DNA of 10,291 nt. It comes from Komagataeibacter kakiaceti JCM 25156 (lineage in GTDB: Bacteria > Pseudomonadota > Alphaproteobacteria > Acetobacterales > Acetobacteraceae). The DNA is taken from positions 1 through 10,291 of the forward strand of contig NZ_BAIO01000050.1 in assembly GCF_000613305.1 (NCBI RefSeq), written 5' to 3'. Positions 1 through 10,291 of the stretch are shown piece by piece; position 1 is the stretch's first letter, and every line of letters starts with the position of its first letter. Made by a program: the position numbers and the translations under genes. The notes beneath the pieces were generated by a model. The model was given only the letters and a program-made list of their open reading frames with translations, ran no database searches and was not told the DNA's origin.

Positions 1-187
1 CGGCTGGCGTGAGGAACTGGGCGGGATCGTGGTGCTGGGATGCGGGCTGCCATTGCTTGACATCCTGACCGCCCCCGGCGCGTGGATGACCTGTCCCGGC
101 ATTCATGCGGGTGTGGCTGCCATAAGCCTGCTGGCTGCGTTCACGGCCTTATACGCGCGCCGCCGGATTGCGGGCGACAGGGCATGA
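1..187 (+). CDS. C-terminal end of a membrane protein, probably PepSY-associated TM protein (partial)
   Basis: The window opens inside this gene; the frame beginning at base 2 is open for 61 codons and stops at 185-187. The visible tail starts GWREELGG, has two hydrophobic stretches (IVVLGCGLPLLDIL and AAISLLAAFTALY) and ends in a basic ARRRIAGDRA, as expected for the last two membrane helices of an inner-membrane protein with a cytoplasmic end. The stop overlaps the start of the next gene by ATGA, so the two are translationally coupled. Its partner resembles DUF3325, which in many Proteobacteria lies next to PepSY-associated (PiuB-like) proteins in siderophore/iron-uptake operons; the identification rests mainly on that context. 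No PepSY motif is visible in this fragment, so another membrane protein is possible. Confidence 0.55.
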   Translation, partial: GWREELGGIVVLGCGLPLLDILTAPGAWMTCPGIHAGVAAISLLAAFTALYARRRIAGDRA

Positions 188-513: not shown

Positions 514-1800
514 ATGTCTTCCCCCGCTTCTTCCCCCACCATACGGCTCGGCATAGATTTCGGCACGACCAACACGGTCGTGGTCATGCTGGATGCGAAC
601 GGACAGCCGCGCCCCATGCGCTTCTCCTTTCCGCATCATCCACCGGCCGAGACATGCCGCTCGTTACTCTGCCTGTGGCATGAGGAAACGCAGCCCGGCC
701 AGCCGCCGCTGCACGAGGCCATCGGGGCCGCCGCGATTGACGCCTATCTGGAAGACCCGGCGGAAAGCCGACTGATCATGTCCATGAAGTCCTATCTGGC
801 GCAGGCTTCCTTCCGGCAGACACGGCTGCTGGGCCGGGTGATGACGCTGGAAATGCTGATCGCGCGCTTTCTGGACTGTCTCATGCGTGTCATTCAGGTT
901 GATCCCGCCCATGTCAGCGCGACAGTGGGGCGGCCCGTGCAGTTTGCGGGCGAGAGGAGCGACAACGCCTTTGGCGAGCAGCGCCTGCGCGACAGTTTTC
1001 GCACCGCCGGATTCCAGCATGTCAACATCGCTCTGGAACCTGAAGCCGCCGGGTGGCGCTTCGCCCAGAGGCTGAAGGAACCCGCCACGGTTCTGGTTGC
1101 CGATTTTGGCGGTGGCACGAGCGATTTTTCCATCCTGCGCTTTGACCCGGACGCCGCGCAGGGCACCGTCCCCCTGGGCTATGCCGGTGTTGGTATTGCC
1201 GGGGACCAGCTTGACTACCGGATTATCGACCACGTCATTTCGCCCGAACTGGGTCGGCACGCCACCTACCGGGTCATGGGGGGCCAGCCGTTGCCGGTGC
1301 CCGCTGAATGGTATGCAAGCCTGGGCCACTGGCACCGTCTGGCGCTCATGCGCACACCGCAGACACTGCGCGCCATTGCCGATGTCGCCCGCACCGCGTC
1401 CGAACCCCACAGGCTGCATGCGCTGATGAAACTGATCGAGGACCAGCAGGGTCAGACGCTCTATCGCGCGGTTGGCGCGGCAAAACGGGCGCTTTCCTCC
1501 GCCGGGGCGACAGTTCTGGAGTATTCTTACGGAAATCTGGAAATCCGCCGCGAAATTACCCGCACGGAATTCGAAAGCTGGATCGCGCCCGACCTGATCC
1601 GCTTCGATAACGCGGTGGAGGCGGCCCTTACCCGCGCCAACCTGCCCGCAACGGCGATTGACCGGGTGTTCCTGACCGGCGGCACCTCGTTCGTACCGGC
1701 CGTGCGCAACCTGTTTGTCAGGCGGTTTGGAAGCGAACGGGTTGATATGGGTGGGGAATTCGTCTCGGTCGCGGAGGGGCTGGCGCTGATGAATGGCTAA
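514..1800 (+). CDS. Hsp70-family (YegD-like) ATPase lacking a substrate-binding domain
   Basis: A 428-residue cytoplasmic protein with the actin/Hsp70 ATPase fold. The phosphate-1 loop is IDFGTTNT at residues 14-21, the phosphate-2 motif DFGGGTSDF at 197-205, the connecting EPEAAGW at 175-181 (Hsp70 EPxAA), and the adenosine motif FLTGGTSFVP from residue 386. A segment SMKSYL near residue 90 is typical of the YegD subgroup. The protein ends about 30 residues after the adenosine motif, so there is no beta-sandwich substrate domain or helical lid as in DnaK (about 640 residues). YegD-type proteins are presumed ATP-dependent chaperone-like proteins with unknown clients. No dnaJ or grpE is nearby. 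A short AGG lies just upstream of the ATG. The gene stands alone and appears intact, unlike several neighbours. A long opposite-strand frame (664-1836) is a shadow of it. Confidence 0.9.
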   Translation: MSSPASSPTIRLGIDFGTTNTVVVMLDANGQPRPMRFSFPHHPPAETCRSLLCLWHEETQPGQPPLHEAIGAAAIDAYLEDPAESRLIMSMKSYLAQASFRQTRLLGRVMTLEMLIARFLDCLMRVIQVDPAHVSATVGRPVQFAGERSDNAFGEQRLRDSFRTAGFQHVNIALEPEAAGWRFAQRLKEPATVLVADFGGGTSDFSILRFDPDAAQGTVPLGYAGVGIAGDQLDYRIIDHVISPELGRHATYRVMGGQPLPVPAEWYASLGHWHRLALMRTPQTLRAIADVARTASEPHRLHALMKLIEDQQGQTLYRAVGAAKRALSSAGATVLEYSYGNLEIRREITRTEFESWIAPDLIRFDNAVEAALTRANLPATAIDRVFLTGGTSFVPAVRNLFVRRFGSERVDMGGEFVSVAEGLALMNG

Positions 1801-1851
1801 ACGGTTGTTTGAAAACAACTGATTGACAAAAAACAATGAAAGGCTTTGGAG

Positions 1852-1876
1852 CGCCGCCTTTTTTCAAAAGGCGGCG
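1852..1876. terminator. Strong hairpin between convergent genes, putative bidirectional terminator
   Basis: A perfect 11-bp stem, CGCCGCCTTTT (1852-1862) with AAAAGGCGGCG (1866-1876), closes a 3-base loop. It lies between the Hsp70 gene (+, ends 1800) and the M48 gene (-, ends 1937), where termination from both sides is needed. The A/T pairs at the loop end and the TTT after the stem on the + strand suit a rho-independent terminator, though the T-run is short. A second small dyad, GTTGTTT/AAACAAC, is at 1804-1819. Confidence 0.6.
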
Positions 1877-1936
1877 TTTAAAGCGTCACCAGAAACTTTC
1901 TTCTGATTTACAGAAGATTACCCGCGCACATGACTG

Positions 1937-3426
1937 TCAGAGTTTATTATTCTGCGCGTCATTGCACAGCGTCTTGATGGCGTCATCACCCGTTGCAATA
2001 CATTTGGCCATCAGAACCGCCGTATCCCCCTTCGGGTTCTGTTTTTTAATAACCCTGATCCGGTATGCGTACATACCGTCATCCCCGAACTGCTTCTGGA
2101 TATTTTCATATATGCCCAGCGCCTGCGTGTACTGCTTCTGTGTTTCCAGCGTCTGCGCATAGGCCTTGGCGATATCTTCCGTCACATCGGGCCTCAGATA
2201 GGCCTGGTGCAACTGGCCGAGCATCTGGTTCCCCTGCCCTTTCTGCTGGCGGGCCATGTATTCCAGATAGAAGTAATATTCACTCCGCTGCACCGCGGGA
2301 CTTTTTACATTATGCAGGACGCGCAACGTCGCATCGGCGCTCGGGGCGTTATGCTTGTCGAGTGATGCGGTCTGGATCGTGTTCAGGCTTTTTACATCGG
2401 TCAGAAGCTGTTTTACAGGCTGCTGCCCGATAAAGCTGTGGAACGGTGCGGAGCGAAGCGTGACCATCTGGTCATCATATTCACGGTTGATATACGCACG
2501 CGCCTTTTTAAGGCGTTTGCCGCCACCGGGATGGTCCGCTGCAATATCATGCAGGGTAGCCTGTGTATTACGCCCGAGCCACCCGATGCCCTGATTGAGA
2601 AAGCCGGTAACCGGGTTGCCGGTACTGACGACATCCTTGAAAAAGTCCCGGTCCAGCGCGGCCTGTTTTTCGTGTTCCTCCTGCTCGCGCTGCTTGAAGA
2701 TTTCCAGAACCTTCAGCGCTTCCTCCACCGAGTAGTTGGCCCGCGCCATAAGGTCGATCGCAAGGGTATCGGCCTCGACCTCCTGCCCCCGCTGCCAGAT
2801 CGGGAAAATATATTCCTGCGCCATCTCGACCATCGCGCTGTCAGCCACATAGGCCAGCGCCGCGCCGCCGCCCACGGGGGCATATTTCGCCATATGCGCC
2901 ATGGCGGACATAAGCTGGAGCGCCCCGTTGGTCTTGTCCATCATCTTCTTGGAATTGCGCATGTCCGCCGGGTGGTTCAGCAGGACATGGGCCAGTTCGT
3001 GCGCCACCACGAAGGCCATGCATCTTCCGACTGGAATTCGGGCGACGTGGCGAAATAGTTCAGAATGCCGGTAGTAAACACCAGCGTTCCGCCAATCGTG
3101 GCGTCACTGGTGAACTGGTCGTTGGGCTGGATATAGATGTAAAGGGGGGGCTTTGGCCCCTGCCAGCCTGCCAGAAGGTTGTTGGCTATCTTCTTCAGAT
3201 AGGCGACCGTCACGGGTTCCGACAGCACGCCAACCGGAATCTTGTTGTTCGGATCAAGCAGTTGCGGGCCGGGCTGCATGCCGGGATAGGACGTGACAGG
3301 CGTAATGACGGAGATATATTTGCCCTTGCCCGGAACATCCGGCGCGGCCGTGGCCTGCCCGGCCATGAGACCGGTACAGGCCAGAATGGAGAGCGCCAGA
3401 TTTCCGAAGCCACAACGGTATTTCAT
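1937..3426 (-). pseudogene. Secreted M48-family zinc metalloprotease with helical (TPR-like) C-terminus, frameshifted
   Basis: Two - strand frames join into one protein: 3426 down to about 3020 (signal peptide and N-domain) and 3019 down to 1937 (catalytic domain and tail). Adding one base at 3019-3022 restores an Ala codon and reads ...SEDA-MAFVVAHELAH..., giving 496 residues, normal for secreted BepA-like M48 proteases. The signal peptide ends near GQATAA (about residues 1-28). HELAH is at joined residues 143-147; the third zinc ligand is Glu in RGQEVEAD (about 216). The last 150 residues look helical and repeat-like, as in M48 proteins with TPR tails that handle misfolded envelope proteins. 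It follows the small exported protein by 18 bases and is last in the set. As given, translation would stop just before the active site after 149 residues. Either a true frameshift or a one-base sequence error; the intact downstream motifs favour a recent or artefactual break. Confidence 0.85.
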
Positions 3427-3444
3427 GCTGTCTTGACCTTGGGA

Positions 3445-3828
3445 TCAGTTGCAACCAGACGCCAGACCGGAGGTGGAACTATCCTCACGGCTGGCGGAAG
3501 CTGGCCGCAGCAGCCGGCAGTCCCCCTCAGCCGGGAGTTCGACCTTGGCGCTGGTCCCGACCTTGCCCGGCTTGACCATGACCACGCCCTTGTCCGTCTG
3601 GATCCTGAGCAGGCCGGTTGTCGGGTCTTCCCCCACCACGGGGCGGTGCAGCAGGGCGGCGGCGGGCAGTTTGCCCATCGGCTTATGGTCAGGCCCGAAA
3701 ACGGTTACGGAATCGGCAAAGACATCCGTCACCATATTGGCCCGGGCCGCATGGCCCGGCTGGGGGGCGAACGTGGCGCCCGCCATCAGCGCGCCAACGA
3801 ACAGGACAGGATAAAAATAACGCTTCAT
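3445..3828 (-). CDS. Small exported protein of unknown function, possibly SH3-like
   Basis: A 127-residue protein starting MKRYFYPVLF. An in-frame start at 3864 exists, but 3828 is better: GAGGAA lies six bases upstream and the signal peptide then begins at once. The N-terminus has a basic MKR, a hydrophobic core (YPVLFVGALMAGATFA) and probable cleavage near PGHAARA, so the mature protein should be periplasmic. The mature part is short-stranded: DSVTVFGPDHKPMGKL, then TTGLLRIQTDKGVVMVKPGKV. That spacing recalls bacterial SH3-like domains, but I recognise no family. It has two Cys (DC near residue 103 and the second-last residue), which could form a disulfide. It lies 32 bases after the CHASE2 stop and 18 before the M48 start, so it is very probably co-transcribed with both and may act with the protease or sensor. 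Confidence 0.75.
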   Translation of the reverse strand: MKRYFYPVLFVGALMAGATFAPQPGHAARANMVTDVFADSVTVFGPDHKPMGKLPAAALLHRPVVGEDPTTGLLRIQTDKGVVMVKPGKVGTSAKVELPAEGDCRLLRPASASREDSSTSGLASGCN

Positions 3829-3860
3829 TTCAAATTCCTCTGACAGATCGGGTCCACGGG

Positions 3861-5622
3861 TCATTTATCCTGACCGGTATTGTGACCCAGGTTCATGAAT
3901 GTTTTTGTTCTTTCATATCTGACAACAAGCCTGCGCCAGATGGATGAACAGAAGCTCGATATACTCTGCACCGGGCTGTTATCTTCATTGACTTCCGGTA
4001 CGGTGAACCACAACAGCGCAAGGCCGATCCAGTCGGTATTGGGCCAGTGAAAGAACAGTTCGTTGACACAGAAGGCCACGGCGCTGATGCACAGGACCTG
4101 CCGCAGCTTTCTCAGATAGGTTCGTGTCTCGAACTCGATGGGCATCAGTACGATCAGTATGAATACAAATCCGTACAGCCCGATAAGAACCGGTGAGAAT
4201 ATGTGGCGTGACCCCAGGTCAAGAACACAGCACACAGTACAGAACACGGCGGCCGCCACGATCTTGGCGCGGCTGAACAGTCTGTGGCGGGGGCTTCCAT
4301 CGTGCTTCCGGGGCGGCGCGCGCCTGCCGGTCTTTTTTTCGGCCACCTTTGTGTTCTGTTCACTACCGGTGCGCGAAGGCGCCTGGTTCTTCTCGATAGC
4401 CCTGAGATGCTTTATGACAAGGCTGAGACTGAGCGCCATCCACAGCACCAGTTCCACCATCTCCGCCCTGTCGAGCGAGAGATAACGGGTTTTTATGAAA
4501 CCGGGCGCTTCATGGAAATACTGCGTCCCATAGGTCAGCAGGTTATCGAACGCCATGGCGTGCAACTGGACACCGGGAATCTGCCCGATGGCCGGGGCGT
4601 TGACCACGTCATGCATGGCGGCCAGATCGCCACCATAAAAGACCGCGCGGCCCTGCAATACATCCGTATAGGGGCGGTTCGTGCGTGGCGATATGTTGTC
4701 CAGCAACGCCGCATCCATGGTCAGCGGGTAGAAACAGGCGTTTTCCCGGGGCGGAACCCACTGCCCCCACAAGGCATCAAAACCGGTGCCTATGGCGCGC
4801 CACACACGCGACGCCCCCCCTGCCGTTGCATCCACGCAGCCGCCGGAACTGTTGAAAACCTGTTTCTGGACCGGATCGACATACACGCCCCAGCGCACGA
4901 AGGCGGGTTCCTCGAATGACTCATCAACATGGCATAGATTGCGCCACCGGTCGGCACAGAGCGCGCTGTACATGGCGAAAGCCGCGGTGGGGGCAGTTGC
5001 TTCCTCATCCCCGCCCGGCACGTGCACATGCAGTGGGTACATGCCCGGTTTTTCGCCCACCCAGCCTGAATAGACCTGATAGGGGGTCAGCGGGGCGGGC
5101 AGCATGCCGGTCGGATCACCGGGAATGCCATGCACGAAAAAGATCGGCACATGCATCTGCCGCGCCTGCGCCAGCACGCCGTCCAGGGCATGCAGGTCAT
5201 CATTCTGCCGTTCGCCATTGAAGTAGATGTCAACCAGAATGGCGGCGGGTTTTGCATCCAGTATCTGTTTAAGCAGATAGCATGGCGGTGATAGGAAATC
5301 GGCCAGGCCTCCCCGAAATAGCCGAGGGAATCATCCGATATTTCCACAACCGCGATATGTGACTGCGACCGCCCGTGGGAGCCGTAACCGTAAAATGGCT
5401 CCGTAATGGCGGAGAAGAATTGACCCGATGCCGATTTGGTCGCGCTTTCCAGCCCTACCGGGTCAATATACTTGAAAACCACCCAGTACATGAGGAAAAG
5501 GAGCATAAGCCCCCGCCCCGCAGGCCCAGCCCGGCATACCGCCCCCTGAATTGCCAGACCCGCCGGCAGAAGCGGGAAATATCGTTCAGGCGGATTGCTT
5601 CATGGTCGGGTATGCTTCTCAC
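3861..5622 (-). pseudogene. CHASE2-domain membrane sensor without output domain, frameshifted
   Basis: Adding one base at about 5280 joins two frames (...ISYHRHA-YLLKQILDAKPAAILVD...). A second added base in the G-run at about 5508-5513 would extend the protein upstream to a GTG at 5622 with a basic, positive-inside N-terminus (RFCRRVWQFRGR), giving 587 residues. That start lacks a clear ribosome site; ATG at 5506 is the alternative. CHASE2 features: a first membrane helix (LLFLMYWVVF), HIAVVEISDDSLGYFGEAWP, AAILVDIYF, and the closing GRAVFYGGDLAAMHDVVN...IPGVQLHAMAFDNLL (joined residues about 325-363). Then come a membrane helix (about 390-405), a basic linker of about 40 residues, and roughly three more helices. 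CHASE2 is an extracytoplasmic sensory domain usually linked to a kinase, cyclase or GGDEF output. None is present, so this may be a sensor that signals through partners. First gene of the set with the small exported protein and the M48 protease. Confidence 0.8.
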
Positions 5623-5831
5623 GCTTAATTTAGACCGTTTATCCTCAATTCCTTGTCATTGAAAAACAGTCAGGTCAACAGGAAAGAAACAATCTGTAAC
5701 CATCCACAATCCTGACAGCAACGCCTCACCATTGCGCGGGCCGCAGCCAGCGGCTTCAACCCGCGTAATGTCACGGCCAGGGCAATGCCAGTAACCAGTC
5801 TGTCTATCCGTGCATGAGCGCAGGTATTCTT
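5623..5831. other. Intergenic gap between copB and the CHASE2 gene, with an open stretch
   Basis: About 210 bases without a convincing gene. On the - strand, the frame of the copB stop stays open a further 54 codons, to a stop at 5670-5672, and reads as hydrophobic and basic (for example ALAVTLRGLKPLAAARAMVRR). It has no start codon with a ribosome site and I recognise no family; it may be chance or the remnant of a displaced gene. The promoter for the CHASE2 set should lie here, but I see no convincing -35/-10 pair. No clear terminator for copB is visible. Confidence 0.35.
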
Positions 5832-6610
5832 TCAGAACCAGCTCCGGACCCCGAAACTGAACCTGAGCGAGCCGGTTTCGCCGCGCTGGTCATGCACGAT
5901 CCGCCGGGCCTGTGTCAGGTAACCGGAATAGGTAACGGCCACATAAGGCGCGAATTTGCGCCATATTTCATAACGCAGCCGCAACCCGGCATCGACATCG
6001 GACAGGCCCGCGCCAACCTGCCGGGCGGGGTCGGACTTGGTATAGAGATTGAATTCCGCCTGTGGCTGAAGGATCAGGCGGTTGGTCAGCAGGAAATCGT
6101 AAGATCCTCAAGACGGGAGGCAAACCGCCCCCGGTCACTGACATACGCCGTGGCCTGCACCTCGAACTGGTAGAGGGCAAGCCCCTGCACGCCCAGCGCG
6201 CCCCATGTGCGCGTCGGGCCATCGTCAATATCCGCCCGCACCCCCGTCTGCACATTGAAATAGGGCGAGACCGCACGGCTGTAGAGGAGTTCATGGTCCC
6301 CGTCATGCAGGCGGCCATGCTCAAGGGTTCCTTCGGATTTGAGCCAGACCCTGTTGTAATCCGTGCCGTACCACGCCTCGCCATCCCAGCGGAAATCCGA
6401 ACCGCCGGGGGCGTAACGTCCCTCCAGCTGATCAAGGATTCCGTGGAAATAGCTGGCCTGATCCATGACGGGCCGCATACCGCCCAGATAGGCCACGGGC
6501 GTGGCGGAAGGCGCATCGGCCGCGCGGTAAACCGTGCCGGACGATTGGGCGCGCGCCGCCGGTCCCATGCCGGACAGCACGAACGCCGCCAGTAAAAACG
6601 CCCGCTTCAT
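5832..6610 (-). pseudogene. copB: Copper resistance protein CopB (outer membrane), frameshifted
   Basis: CopB is an outer-membrane beta-barrel of the Pco/Cop copper-resistance system. The start at 6610 overlaps the copA stop (ATGA), so the two are coupled. A signal peptide (MKRAFLLAAFVLSG...AARA) is followed by CopB hallmarks: VMDQASYFHGILDQLEGR, FRWDGEAWYGTDYNRVWLKSEG and HGRLHDGDHELLYSRAVSPYFNVQTGVRAD. The frame breaks at about 6105 after SRLE and ends early as DLTISC. One added base restores SYDFLLTNRLILQPQAEFNLY, then LSDVDAGLRLRYEIWRKFAPYV, and the classical barrel end GVRSWF with a stop at 5832-5834. The repaired protein has 259 residues. It lacks the Met/His-rich N-terminal segment of longer CopB proteins, and the metal-rich region is in CopA instead. 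Identity is very secure; whether the break is biological is not. Confidence 0.9.
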
Positions 6611-8393
6611 GCCACGATCACCGTGCGGAACATGCCCAGTTCCATATGCAGCATGAGATGGCAGTGATAGGCCCACATGCCCGGAACATCGGCCGTGACC
6701 AGATAGCTCATGCGCGAACCCGGCTGGGAAATGAGCGTGTGCTTGTAGGGGCGGTACGCGCCCTGCCCGTTTTCCAGTTCACTCCACAGGCCATGCAGGT
6801 GGATGGGGTGTTCCATCATCGTATCGTTGATGAGGGTGAATCGCACCCGCTCGTCCCTGCGAAGGCGGATCGGCCCGGATTCAGAAAATTTCCGCCCGTT
6901 GAAGCCCCATATGTACCGCTCCATGTTTCCGGTCAGGTGCATGATGATCTCACGCGTGGGCGGGCGCTGATCCGCCCCCGGCCGGGTGGCGCGAAGCTGG
7001 CGGTAGTTCAGCACCCGGCGGCCGTTGGCCTCCAGCCCGTCGCCGGGACTGCCAAGACGGTCCACCGGCATTTTCGCGACATTCTGGTTTTCGACATTCA
7101 GCGGCGGCGGGCCGGGATCATCCACCTCCATCGGCGGGTGGTCCATGGGGGCCATGTGGGACATATCCATGTCCTTCATGTCCATGCCCGCCATGTCATC
7201 ATCCGGTTTCATGTCGGACATATCCATGCCCTTCATGCTTTCACCCGGCTTCATGTCCCCCATGCCCATATCGACCATGGTGCGCACCGGGCGCGGATCC
7301 ATGGGTGGGATCGGGCCAGCCATGCCCTCACGGGGGGCAAGCGTGCCGCGCGCATAGCCGGTACGGTCTTCGCTCTGGGCAAAAATGCTGTAGGCCCGGT
7401 TATCCCTGGGCTGAACGATCACATCATAGGTTTCCGCCACCCCGATGCGGAATTCATCCACCGGCACCGGCTCGACATCATTGCCATCCGCCTGCACCAC
7501 CAGCATTTCAAGGCCCGGAATACGGACATCGAAAAAGGTCATGGATGATCCGTTGATGAACCGCAGGCGCACCCTTTCACCGGGGCGGAACAGGCCGCTC
7601 CAGTTCATGTCCGGCGCATGGCCGTTGAGCAGATAGGTGTAGATGATACCCGTGACATCGGCGATGTCGGTCGCGGCCATGCGCATGCGTGACCAGGCGA
7701 GACGGTCCCTGAGCGCCGCCATGGCGCTTCCGGCAGCGCGGGCCTCACGCGGGAAAGACGCCGCCGTGCGCTGGCGGAAGACATAGTAGTCATCCTGCAT
7801 CTTGAGGTTGTTCATGATGTCCGTGGGGGAGACATCGGTCCATTCGGACAGCAGGATGACGTAATCGCGCTCACACGCATTGGGGTCCACGCGCGGGGGT
7901 CGATCACGATGCCGCCGTAAAGCCCCTGCGCCTCCTGCATGCCGGAGTGGCTGTGGTACCAGTAGGTTCCGCTCTGCCGGACAGGAAAGCGGTAGGTAAA
8001 TGTCTCACCGGGCTGGATGCCGGTAAAACTCAGCCCCGGCACGCCATCCATGTTCGCGGGCAGGCGGATGCCGTGCCAGTGGATGGACGTATCCTCGTCC
8101 CGAAGGGCGTTGGTCACGTTGATGGTGACCGTATCCCCCTGCCGCCACCGCAGGATGGGGCCGGGAACACTGCCCTCCATGCAGGCTGTATGAAGGACCT
8201 TATGGTCGATTTCCACGCGGTTTCGGCTGACACGCATGTTCCACACCGCGCTGGACGCAGGCGGCACCGTGCCGGATACGACCCGGCTGGCGCGCGACGG
8301 ACAGGGCAAGGCGGCCATCATGCCACCAGCCCCAAGGCCCGTGACAAAACGGCGACGTGTCAGGCCGCCCCGGATACGAGACGGTATGAACAT
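6607..8393 (-). pseudogene. copA: Multicopper oxidase CopA (periplasmic copper resistance), frameshifted
   Basis: Periplasmic cuproxidase/sequestration protein of the Cop/Pco system, not the P-type ATPase of the same name. The N-terminus has a twin-arginine signal (TRRRFVTGL, residues 12-20). Type 2/3 copper motifs are HWHG (105-108) and WYHSHSGMQEAQG (145-157); the C-terminal set is HPIHLHG (529-535) and HCHLMLHMELGM (577-588), with Cys and Met ligands for type 1 copper. The frame breaks at about 7891 after YGGIVIDPR; one added base gives an Ala codon and continues VDPNACERDYVILLSEWTD, for 595 residues in all, a normal CopA length. As given, translation stops after 193 residues. A Met-rich segment lies at about 373-422. 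The stop overlaps the copB start. The ATG at 8393 has only a weak GGA about nine bases upstream; no better in-frame start is seen. Confidence 0.93.
7129..7278 (-). repeat. Met/Asp-rich degenerate repeat inside copA
   Basis: Fifty codons with 16 Met, plus many Asp and Gly and two His. The units are degenerate, such as MKGMDMSDMKP, MAGMDMKDMDM and SHMAPMDHPPM. At DNA level the + strand shows repeated GACATATCCATG and CTTCATG words. Such segments in CopA proteins bind several Cu(I) ions by thioether coordination. Slippage between units could change the copy number. Confidence 0.85.
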
Positions 8394-8474: not shown

Positions 8475-8852
8475 TCAGCTATTCCGGAATTTGGGGGGAC
8501 GTAAGGGGGGCAGCCAGTCGCCCCCGACAGGACGCACCTGTTCATGGAACATGAACGCCCGCGTATTCACACCCGGCGGCTGGCCCGGACGCTGGGCTGG
8601 TGTGGGAGATGACAGGTCGGATGCACAGAGATGGACATGACAGCACGGATCCTGATGATGCGCGTGCCCCACCGGCAGGGCCGTGGAGGATGGCGTGCAG
8701 TGCGTCCCGGCCATGTCATGACATGCCGCCATGGCGACATGGGCGTGCGGATGGGCCTGTGCCGACATGGGGAAGGCACCGATCAGCAGCCCCGCTTGCA
8801 TGAGCAGGCAGGCAAGAAAACCGATCAGTATCCGGCCATGTGTCCTGACCAT
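8475..8852 (-). CDS. Small exported His/Cys-rich protein of the copper cluster (DUF2946-like?)
   Basis: A 125-residue protein beginning MVRTHGRILIGFLACLLMQAG; the ATG has GGAG six bases upstream. A hydrophobic signal segment (residues about 8-27) ends near MSAQAHPHA, so the mature part is periplasmic. It then carries potential metal ligands: HPHAHVAMAACHDMAGTHC and GHAHHQDPCCHVHLC, with five Cys and about ten His in some 45 residues. The C-terminus is Pro-rich (DWLPPLRPPKFRNS), resembling the PPR-type endings of small DUF2946-like proteins found beside copper genes; the family assignment is tentative. It lies between copZ and copA, 81 bases before copA. A perfect TATAAT upstream suggests its own promoter. 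A role in periplasmic copper binding or delivery is inferred from composition and position. Confidence 0.75.
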   Translation of the reverse strand: MVRTHGRILIGFLACLLMQAGLLIGAFPMSAQAHPHAHVAMAACHDMAGTHCTPSSTALPVGHAHHQDPCCHVHLCASDLSSPTPAQRPGQPPGVNTRAFMFHEQVRPVGGDWLPPLRPPKFRNS

Positions 8853-9342: not shown

Positions 9343-9684
9343 TCAGCGTATCATCTTGCGTATGAGATCCAGAATCTCCCTGATCTCCGCATTGCCCCCG
9401 TCCTCCATGACCGCCTTGCGCACGCATCCACTGACATGGGTGGAAAGAATCTGGATCGCCACCCCGTCCAGCGCGGATTTCACCGCTGAAATCTGGGTCA
9501 GAATATCGACGCAGTAGCGATCATTCTCGATCATGTTCAGAACACCACCGACCTGCCCCTCGATCCGGCGGATACGGTTGACCAGCGCCTTCTTGTGCGG
9601 TTGCGCGACCTTTCTGGCTTCGGTCTCCGGCGCGCAATGGTCACAACTGGCGGCTTCCTTCGCCGGCTGTTTCTGTCGGGGCAT
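9343..9684 (-). CDS. csoR: CsoR-family Cu(I)-sensing repressor
   Basis: A 113-residue all-helical DNA-binding regulator. The ATG at 9684 is chosen over one at 9771 because AAGGTG lies six bases upstream. The core is NRIRRIEGQVGGVLNMIE, then YCVDILTQISAVKSALDGV, then STHVSGCVRKAV. The ligands are Cys58, His83 and Cys87, the Cys-His-Cys set of Cu(I)-binding CsoR; nickel-sensing RcnR and formaldehyde-sensing FrmR have other residues at the last site. Cu(I) binding releases such repressors from operators, so it most likely controls copZ and the genes beyond. The N-terminus is about 30 residues longer than minimal CsoR and carries a CDHC motif (14-17) that might add a metal site. First gene of the copper cluster and intact. 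Confidence 0.88.
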   Translation of the reverse strand: MPRQKQPAKEAASCDHCAPETEARKVAQPHKKALVNRIRRIEGQVGGVLNMIENDRYCVDILTQISAVKSALDGVAIQILSTHVSGCVRKAVMEDGGNAEIREILDLIRKMIR

Positions 9685-9950: not shown

Positions 9951-9982
9951 ATGAGACCGATTATCAATTTCATAGGTGCGTG

Positions 9983-10291
9983 ATGCAAGCCATTAGCGGG
10001 GCCACTCTGTGTGCGCCATCGTGGAAAGACTGGCCTTTCAGCAATATGGTCCGGCTATGTTGCGGATCGGGCCTGCTCTGTTTCGGTCTGGTCCTGTCCG
10101 AAACGGGCCATGCCCAGACCCAGATTGAAGAAGACCGGGCGCGACTGGGTAATTCGACCCCCCTGCTCAATGAAACCGACCCCGCGACCCTGCGCGATTC
10201 AGAACGCGCCCAGGCCGATAAGGAGGAAAAGGAAGCAGGCGACGGCAAGCTGGACACCAGCGGCAATCTTCTGGGGGATATGGGCGGCGCG
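9983..10291 (+). CDS. N-terminus of an OprB-like carbohydrate porin (partial)
   Basis: The frame from ATG at 9983 is open for 103 codons to the window edge. AGGTG lies five bases upstream of the ATG. A hydrophobic signal core (LCCGSGLLCFGLVL) is preceded by an unusually long, partly charged n-region; cleavage is likely after ETGHA, before QTQIEEDRARLG. A start at codon 22 (10046) would give a more ordinary signal peptide but lacks a ribosome site. The mature part begins with a charged segment rich in Glu, Asp and Lys, then SGNLLGDMGGA, which resembles the beginning of the barrel in acetic acid bacterial OprB-family proteins. These form outer-membrane channels for sugars and other small solutes. 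With only the N-terminus visible, another outer-membrane protein cannot be excluded. Confidence 0.65.
   Translation, partial: MQAISGATLCAPSWKDWPFSNMVRLCCGSGLLCFGLVLSETGHAQTQIEEDRARLGNSTPLLNETDPATLRDSERAQADKEEKEAGDGKLDTSGNLLGDMGGA

What the first reader, a model, noticed from the sequence alone, without database searches (positions are those of the whole stretch)
3019..7892. Four adjacent genes broken by one-base losses, with no insertions
M48 (about 3020), CHASE2 (about 5280 and probably about 5508), copB (about 6105) and copA (about 7891) each need exactly one added base to join two family-consistent frames. No insertion, in-frame stop or missense decay is evident, and Hsp70, csoR and copZ are intact. 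Four of the five sites are repaired by adding a C or G after a GC or G-run on the coding strand. True decay would usually mix insertions, deletions and stops, so a systematic consensus error of a noisy long-read assembly is the simpler account. If real, this strain has lost both the copper oxidase system and the CHASE2/M48 set.
Basis: partly seen in the sequence, partly recalled or inferred. Interest (0 to 1): 0.75.

Follow-up and report, generated by a model that had tools for sequence, protein, structure and literature searches.

The report
Likely assembly errors breaking four genes
Four neighbouring genes of a vinegar-type bacterium look broken, but they still show the marks of working genes and are whole in its two closest available relatives, so the breaks are most likely sequencing or assembly errors rather than real gene loss.

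Summary
Against two colinear relatives, Komagataeibacter sp. FNDCR2 (about 89% nt) and K. melaceti (about 81-82%), the window is one base short at five places: M48 (1), CHASE2 (2), copB (1), copA (1). The four genes are open in both relatives. No frame-changing insertion was found within them, and no in-frame stop in 2610 compared codons of seven genes.

The broken genes show no decay: replacement:silent counts on the window's branch are 14:112, against 8:45 in three intact genes. Real breaks would have to fall in about the last 2-3% of that branch, where about 0.4 single-base indels (about 1 of any size) are expected; six are seen.

Long same-base runs are not shortened, so this is not plain homopolymer compression, and the platform cannot be named. 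No host genome is held and no reads were available, so the decisive checks were out of reach. Ordinary; low interest.

The parts
514..1800 (+). Intact Hsp70-family gene
   Evidence: 428 aa ORF; PF00012; best NCBIfam match NF008673 (PRK11678) is below its cut-off; no indel against FNDCR2
1937..3426 (-). M48-family peptidase gene, frame changes once, near 3022 (net one base short)
   Evidence: PF01435 on the downstream piece; both relatives intact, 496 and 497 aa
3445..3864 (-). Small intact gene between M48 and CHASE2 (139 aa ORF; start uncertain, 3828 by comparison with FNDCR2)
   Evidence: no Pfam family at E 0.001
3861..5604 (-). CHASE2 gene, frame changes three times, near 5280, 5513 and 5597 (each net one base short); upper end approximate
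   Evidence: CHASE2 domain weak in the fragment, 25.3 bits, strong in the intact FNDCR2 homologue, 64.2 bits
5832..6676 (-). copB gene, frame changes once, near 6107 (net one base short)
   Evidence: PF05275 on the upstream piece; both relatives 281 aa
6607..8393 (-). copA (multicopper oxidase) gene, frame changes once, near 7896 (net one base short)
   Evidence: TIGR01480 on both pieces; both relatives 595 aa
8953..9255 (-). copZ-like gene, open (start uncertain)
   Evidence: NCBIfam CopZ models below cut-off
9343..9684 (-). csoR/ricR-like repressor gene, intact (a longer ORF reaches 9771)
   Evidence: NF052430 below cut-off

Best explanation
The six single-base losses are errors in the consensus sequence of this contig, not mutations of the organism. 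The organism most likely carries working copA, copB, CHASE2 and M48 genes, as its two closest available relatives do. Shown: the losses, the intact relatives, the absence of decay. Inferred: that the cause is sequencing or consensus error. Not known: the platform.
For: Both relatives agree on length at the six sites. No in-frame stop in 2610 codons and no excess of replacement changes: window branch 14:112 in the broken genes vs 8:45 in the intact ones, Fisher p 0.46; broken genes, window branch 14:112 vs FNDCR2 branch 22:151, p 0.72. Constraint limits any neutral period to 2.2-3.0% of the branch, 6.8-8.6% if constrained genes are assumed to make no replacement change at all. At the lineage's own noncoding rate (7 indels, 3 of one base; 91 substitutions) six or more single-base events at 2.5-3% of the branch have P of 2e-6 to 6e-6, or 2e-4 to 6e-4 counting indels of any size. 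All six are losses, whereas the three one-base noncoding events on this lineage are insertions (Fisher p 0.012). Placement along the contig fits chance (range p 0.087). Literature: Kastor (PMC12007338, passages) found indels to be 69% of errors in one long-read assembly, mostly false deletions, errors in under 0.05% of the assembly (here 6 of 10,291, 0.06%); PMC8103633 (passages) reports more pseudogenes in nanopore-only metagenome genomes than in their reference genomes, in all cases but one.
Against: Not a clean homopolymer signature: at most two of six sites touch a run of five or more, and one is an unrepeated base in both relatives. Runs of four or more are not shortened: chosen in FNDCR2, window shorter 1, equal 77, longer 12; chosen in the window, window shorter 4, equal 77, longer 1. 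The Kastor passages tie deletion errors mainly to runs of 4-5, and also report more deletions than insertions (124 vs 71) in an assembly they contrast as Illumina. None of the six falls in 3101 bases of intact coding sequence (p 0.076) or 1398 of noncoding (p 0.42). Under the most generous constraint tried (7.7% of the branch) P is 0.0009, or 0.046 with indels of any size. No reads, platform or other contig of the assembly were available, and no second sequence of the same species was found.
Confidence: 0.85

Rival explanations
1. Real and very recent loss: a strain in which the copper oxidase pair and the CHASE2/M48 set were no longer needed acquired six single-base deletions in a short time, for example under a raised indel rate.
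For: It is what the sequence as given says. Very recent loss would also leave no missense decay. The six fall within one run of five minus-strand genes.
Against: Needs six one-base deletions, no insertion and no stop within about 2-3% of the branch, where about 0.4 one-base indels are expected. CHASE2 has three hits where one would do. copA is open in 81 of 81 related loci, though those were fetched by a copA search and so lean towards good copies.
Confidence: 0.11
2. The genes are functional in pieces or through programmed ribosomal frameshifting, so nothing is lost.
For: Purifying selection persists on both sides of the breaks taken together.
Against: Neither relative has any frame change at these places, the contexts differ from site to site with no shared motif that I could see, and six independent recoding sites in four unrelated genes would be needed.
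Confidence: 0.02

Closest known systems
Indel errors in long-read consensus assemblies (Kastor, PMC12007338; nanopore metagenome genomes, PMC8103633; passages seen)
   Same: Single-base indels, mostly losses, at a similar density, breaking otherwise well conserved genes
   Different: Reported deletion errors sit mainly at same-base runs of 2-8, most often 4-5; here contexts are mostly shorter and longer runs are not shortened. The platform of this contig is unknown
copA/copB copper-resistance genes with copZ and csoR-type neighbours in acetic acid bacteria
   Same: TIGR01480 copA, PF05275 copB, same order in FNDCR2 and K. melaceti
   Different: In this contig copA and copB are each one base short

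Membership tests
Sequence or consensus error (artefact) | Breaks absent from close relatives | tested here: met
   Both relatives are intact at six of six sites; the relatives are other species, no same-species sequence was available
Sequence or consensus error (artefact) | Coding constraint unchanged in the broken genes | tested here: met
   14:112 vs 8:45, p 0.46; no stop in 2610 codons
Sequence or consensus error (artefact) | Platform-typical context (shortened homopolymers) | tested here: not met
   Runs of four or more not shortened; at most two of six sites touch a run of five or more
Sequence or consensus error (artefact) | Reads disagree with the consensus; frameshifts also raised elsewhere in the assembly | not testable with these tools
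   No reads; no host genome held
Pseudogene cluster (true decay) | Mixed lesions or relaxed selection | tested here: not met
   Only one-base losses; no stops, no excess of replacements. Very recent loss is not excluded
copA multicopper oxidase (TIGR01480) | Score above the curated cut-off in one open frame | tested here: inconclusive
   Downstream piece alone 571.6 bits against a cut-off of 478.95; upstream piece 212 bits; the frame is not continuous in this contig

The most novel reading that the evidence does not exclude
The losses are real: a strain close to Komagataeibacter sp. FNDCR2 lost its copper oxidase pair and the neighbouring CHASE2/M48 set almost at once, under a lineage-specific burst of one-base deletions in short contexts, such as a repair defect would give.
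Probability: 0.08. Interest if true: 0.4.

Novelty: not a real feature. Interest (0 to 1): 0.12.

Why it matters
Taken at face value the contig says that this strain lacks its copper oxidase pair and a conserved neighbouring gene set. The evidence says not to record these genes as lost. The case also shows a check that works on one contig without reads: compare the number of breaks with what coding constraint and the lineage's own noncoding indel rate allow. If the losses were real, they would point to an unusual mutation process.

Tried and rejected
Whole window against plasmids, megablast: no match. CHASE2 fragment against viral contigs: no match. Rfam and tRNA scans of the window: nothing at the thresholds used. 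Host genome: none held. Assembly chimera: not supported, since the window is colinear with FNDCR2 in two blocks meeting between Hsp70 and M48. Plain homopolymer compression as the cause: not supported. Papers: Komagataeibacter with CHASE2, 0 papers; acetic acid bacteria with copA, copB and copper resistance, 2 listed, not read; of the 10 listed only Kastor was opened (passages).

Weak points. Noncoding alignment at this divergence makes the seven noncoding indels approximate, and one of them (near 3832) could lie inside the small gene if that gene starts at 3864. Replacement and silent counts use whole codons polarised by simple parsimony, so part of the changes is left out. copA and copB overlap by 70 bases, counted in both. 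The three intact genes in the constraint test are short in total (669 codons).

Full report
What was compared. No host genome is held for the window, and in the protein database its CHASE2 product is known from one contig of exactly 10,291 bases (P0001), so the window is probably a whole free-standing contig. It is colinear with two relatives. L092 (G013) is taken to be Komagataeibacter sp. FNDCR2, from the 3,003,528-base contig length shared. L001/L093 (G001) is K. melaceti AV382. Identity is 87-89% to FNDCR2 and 81-82% to K. melaceti. FNDCR2 was assembled from PacBio plus Illumina reads (PMC8855687, passages), so its open frames are credible.

The breaks. Gene-by-gene alignment with both relatives gives a one-base shortfall in the window at five places: near 3022 in M48, 5280 and 5513 in CHASE2, 6107 in copB and 7896 in copA. 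A three-way alignment of the whole window showed a sixth, near 5597, in the first codons of CHASE2; a closer alignment and the three reading frames confirm it. The four genes are open in both relatives. Frame-changing insertions inside the window's genes: none seen. In-frame stops: 0 in 2610 codons of seven genes, 17 gapped codons dropped. Hsp70, csoR and the small gene between M48 and CHASE2 show no indel against FNDCR2.

Are the genes decaying? No sign of it. With K. melaceti as outgroup, replacement:silent codon changes on the window branch are 14:112 in the four broken genes and 8:45 in three intact ones (Fisher p 0.46); the FNDCR2 branch gives 22:151 and 5:50. A neutral period would give 2.4-3.1 replacements per silent change, depending on the transition bias assumed. 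The upper 97.5% limit on 14 then allows 2.2-3.0% of the branch without constraint, or 6.8-8.6% if constrained genes are assumed to make no replacement change at all.

Is that time enough? In the noncoding parts the window lineage shows 91 substitutions in 1122 aligned columns and seven indels, three of one base, all three insertions. At that rate 2.5-3% of the branch predicts 0.36-0.43 one-base indels, or 0.8-1.0 of any size, in the broken genes. Six or more has P of 2e-6 to 6e-6, or 2e-4 to 6e-4 for any size; at 7.7% of the branch it is 0.0009, or 0.046 for any size. Real loss is unlikely but not excluded; it would need an unusual mutation process.

What kind of error? Deletion-heavy indel errors are reported for long-read assemblies (Kastor, PMC12007338, passages; PMC8103633, passages). 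The contexts here are mostly short, one being an unrepeated base in both relatives, and runs of four or more are not shortened relative to FNDCR2. The Kastor passages tie deletion errors mainly to runs of four to five bases, so the fit is partial, and I name no platform. Placement fits chance: range p 0.087, none in 3101 intact coding bases p 0.076, none in noncoding p 0.42.

Baseline in relatives. copA is open in 81 of 81 loci: 80, and L071, where the match had been split. copB had a match in 80 of 81; in the 14 with under 85% coverage the match still reaches residue 280 or 281 of 281. These loci were fetched with a copA query and so lean towards good copies; that count is support, not proof.

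The locus otherwise. copA (TIGR01480), copB (PF05275), a copZ-like and a csoR/ricR-like gene sit beside an Hsp70, an M48 peptidase, a small protein and a CHASE2 protein. Of 19 genomes searched in the genus, 5 have some match to the 1900-5700 stretch; only K. melaceti and FNDCR2 match along its length, G011 has five short pieces, and G006 and G009 one of 60 bases each.

Verdict. Observation confirmed, with one site more than reported. Most likely a sequence artefact (0.85); real recent loss 0.11. The doubt that remains is the lack of reads and of the rest of the assembly.

Noticed in passing
window 514-5604; L092 7581-12535: CHASE2 and M48 genes seem to travel together: hits for both fall on longest contigs of equal length (278,409; 43,715; 8,859), and both lie beside an Hsp70 gene in FNDCR2 and K. 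melaceti. I know of no function for the set; one search, Komagataeibacter with CHASE2, found no paper.
   Followed up: partly
window 8475-8852: A small open His-rich ORF (125 aa) between copA and copZ, with counterparts of 128 aa in K. melaceti and 123 aa in FNDCR2; no NCBIfam match.
   Followed up: no
window 1-187 and 9980-10291: The window ends inside genes at both sides: the tail of a gene of 507 aa in FNDCR2 on the left, and the start of one of 550 aa on the right.
   Followed up: no
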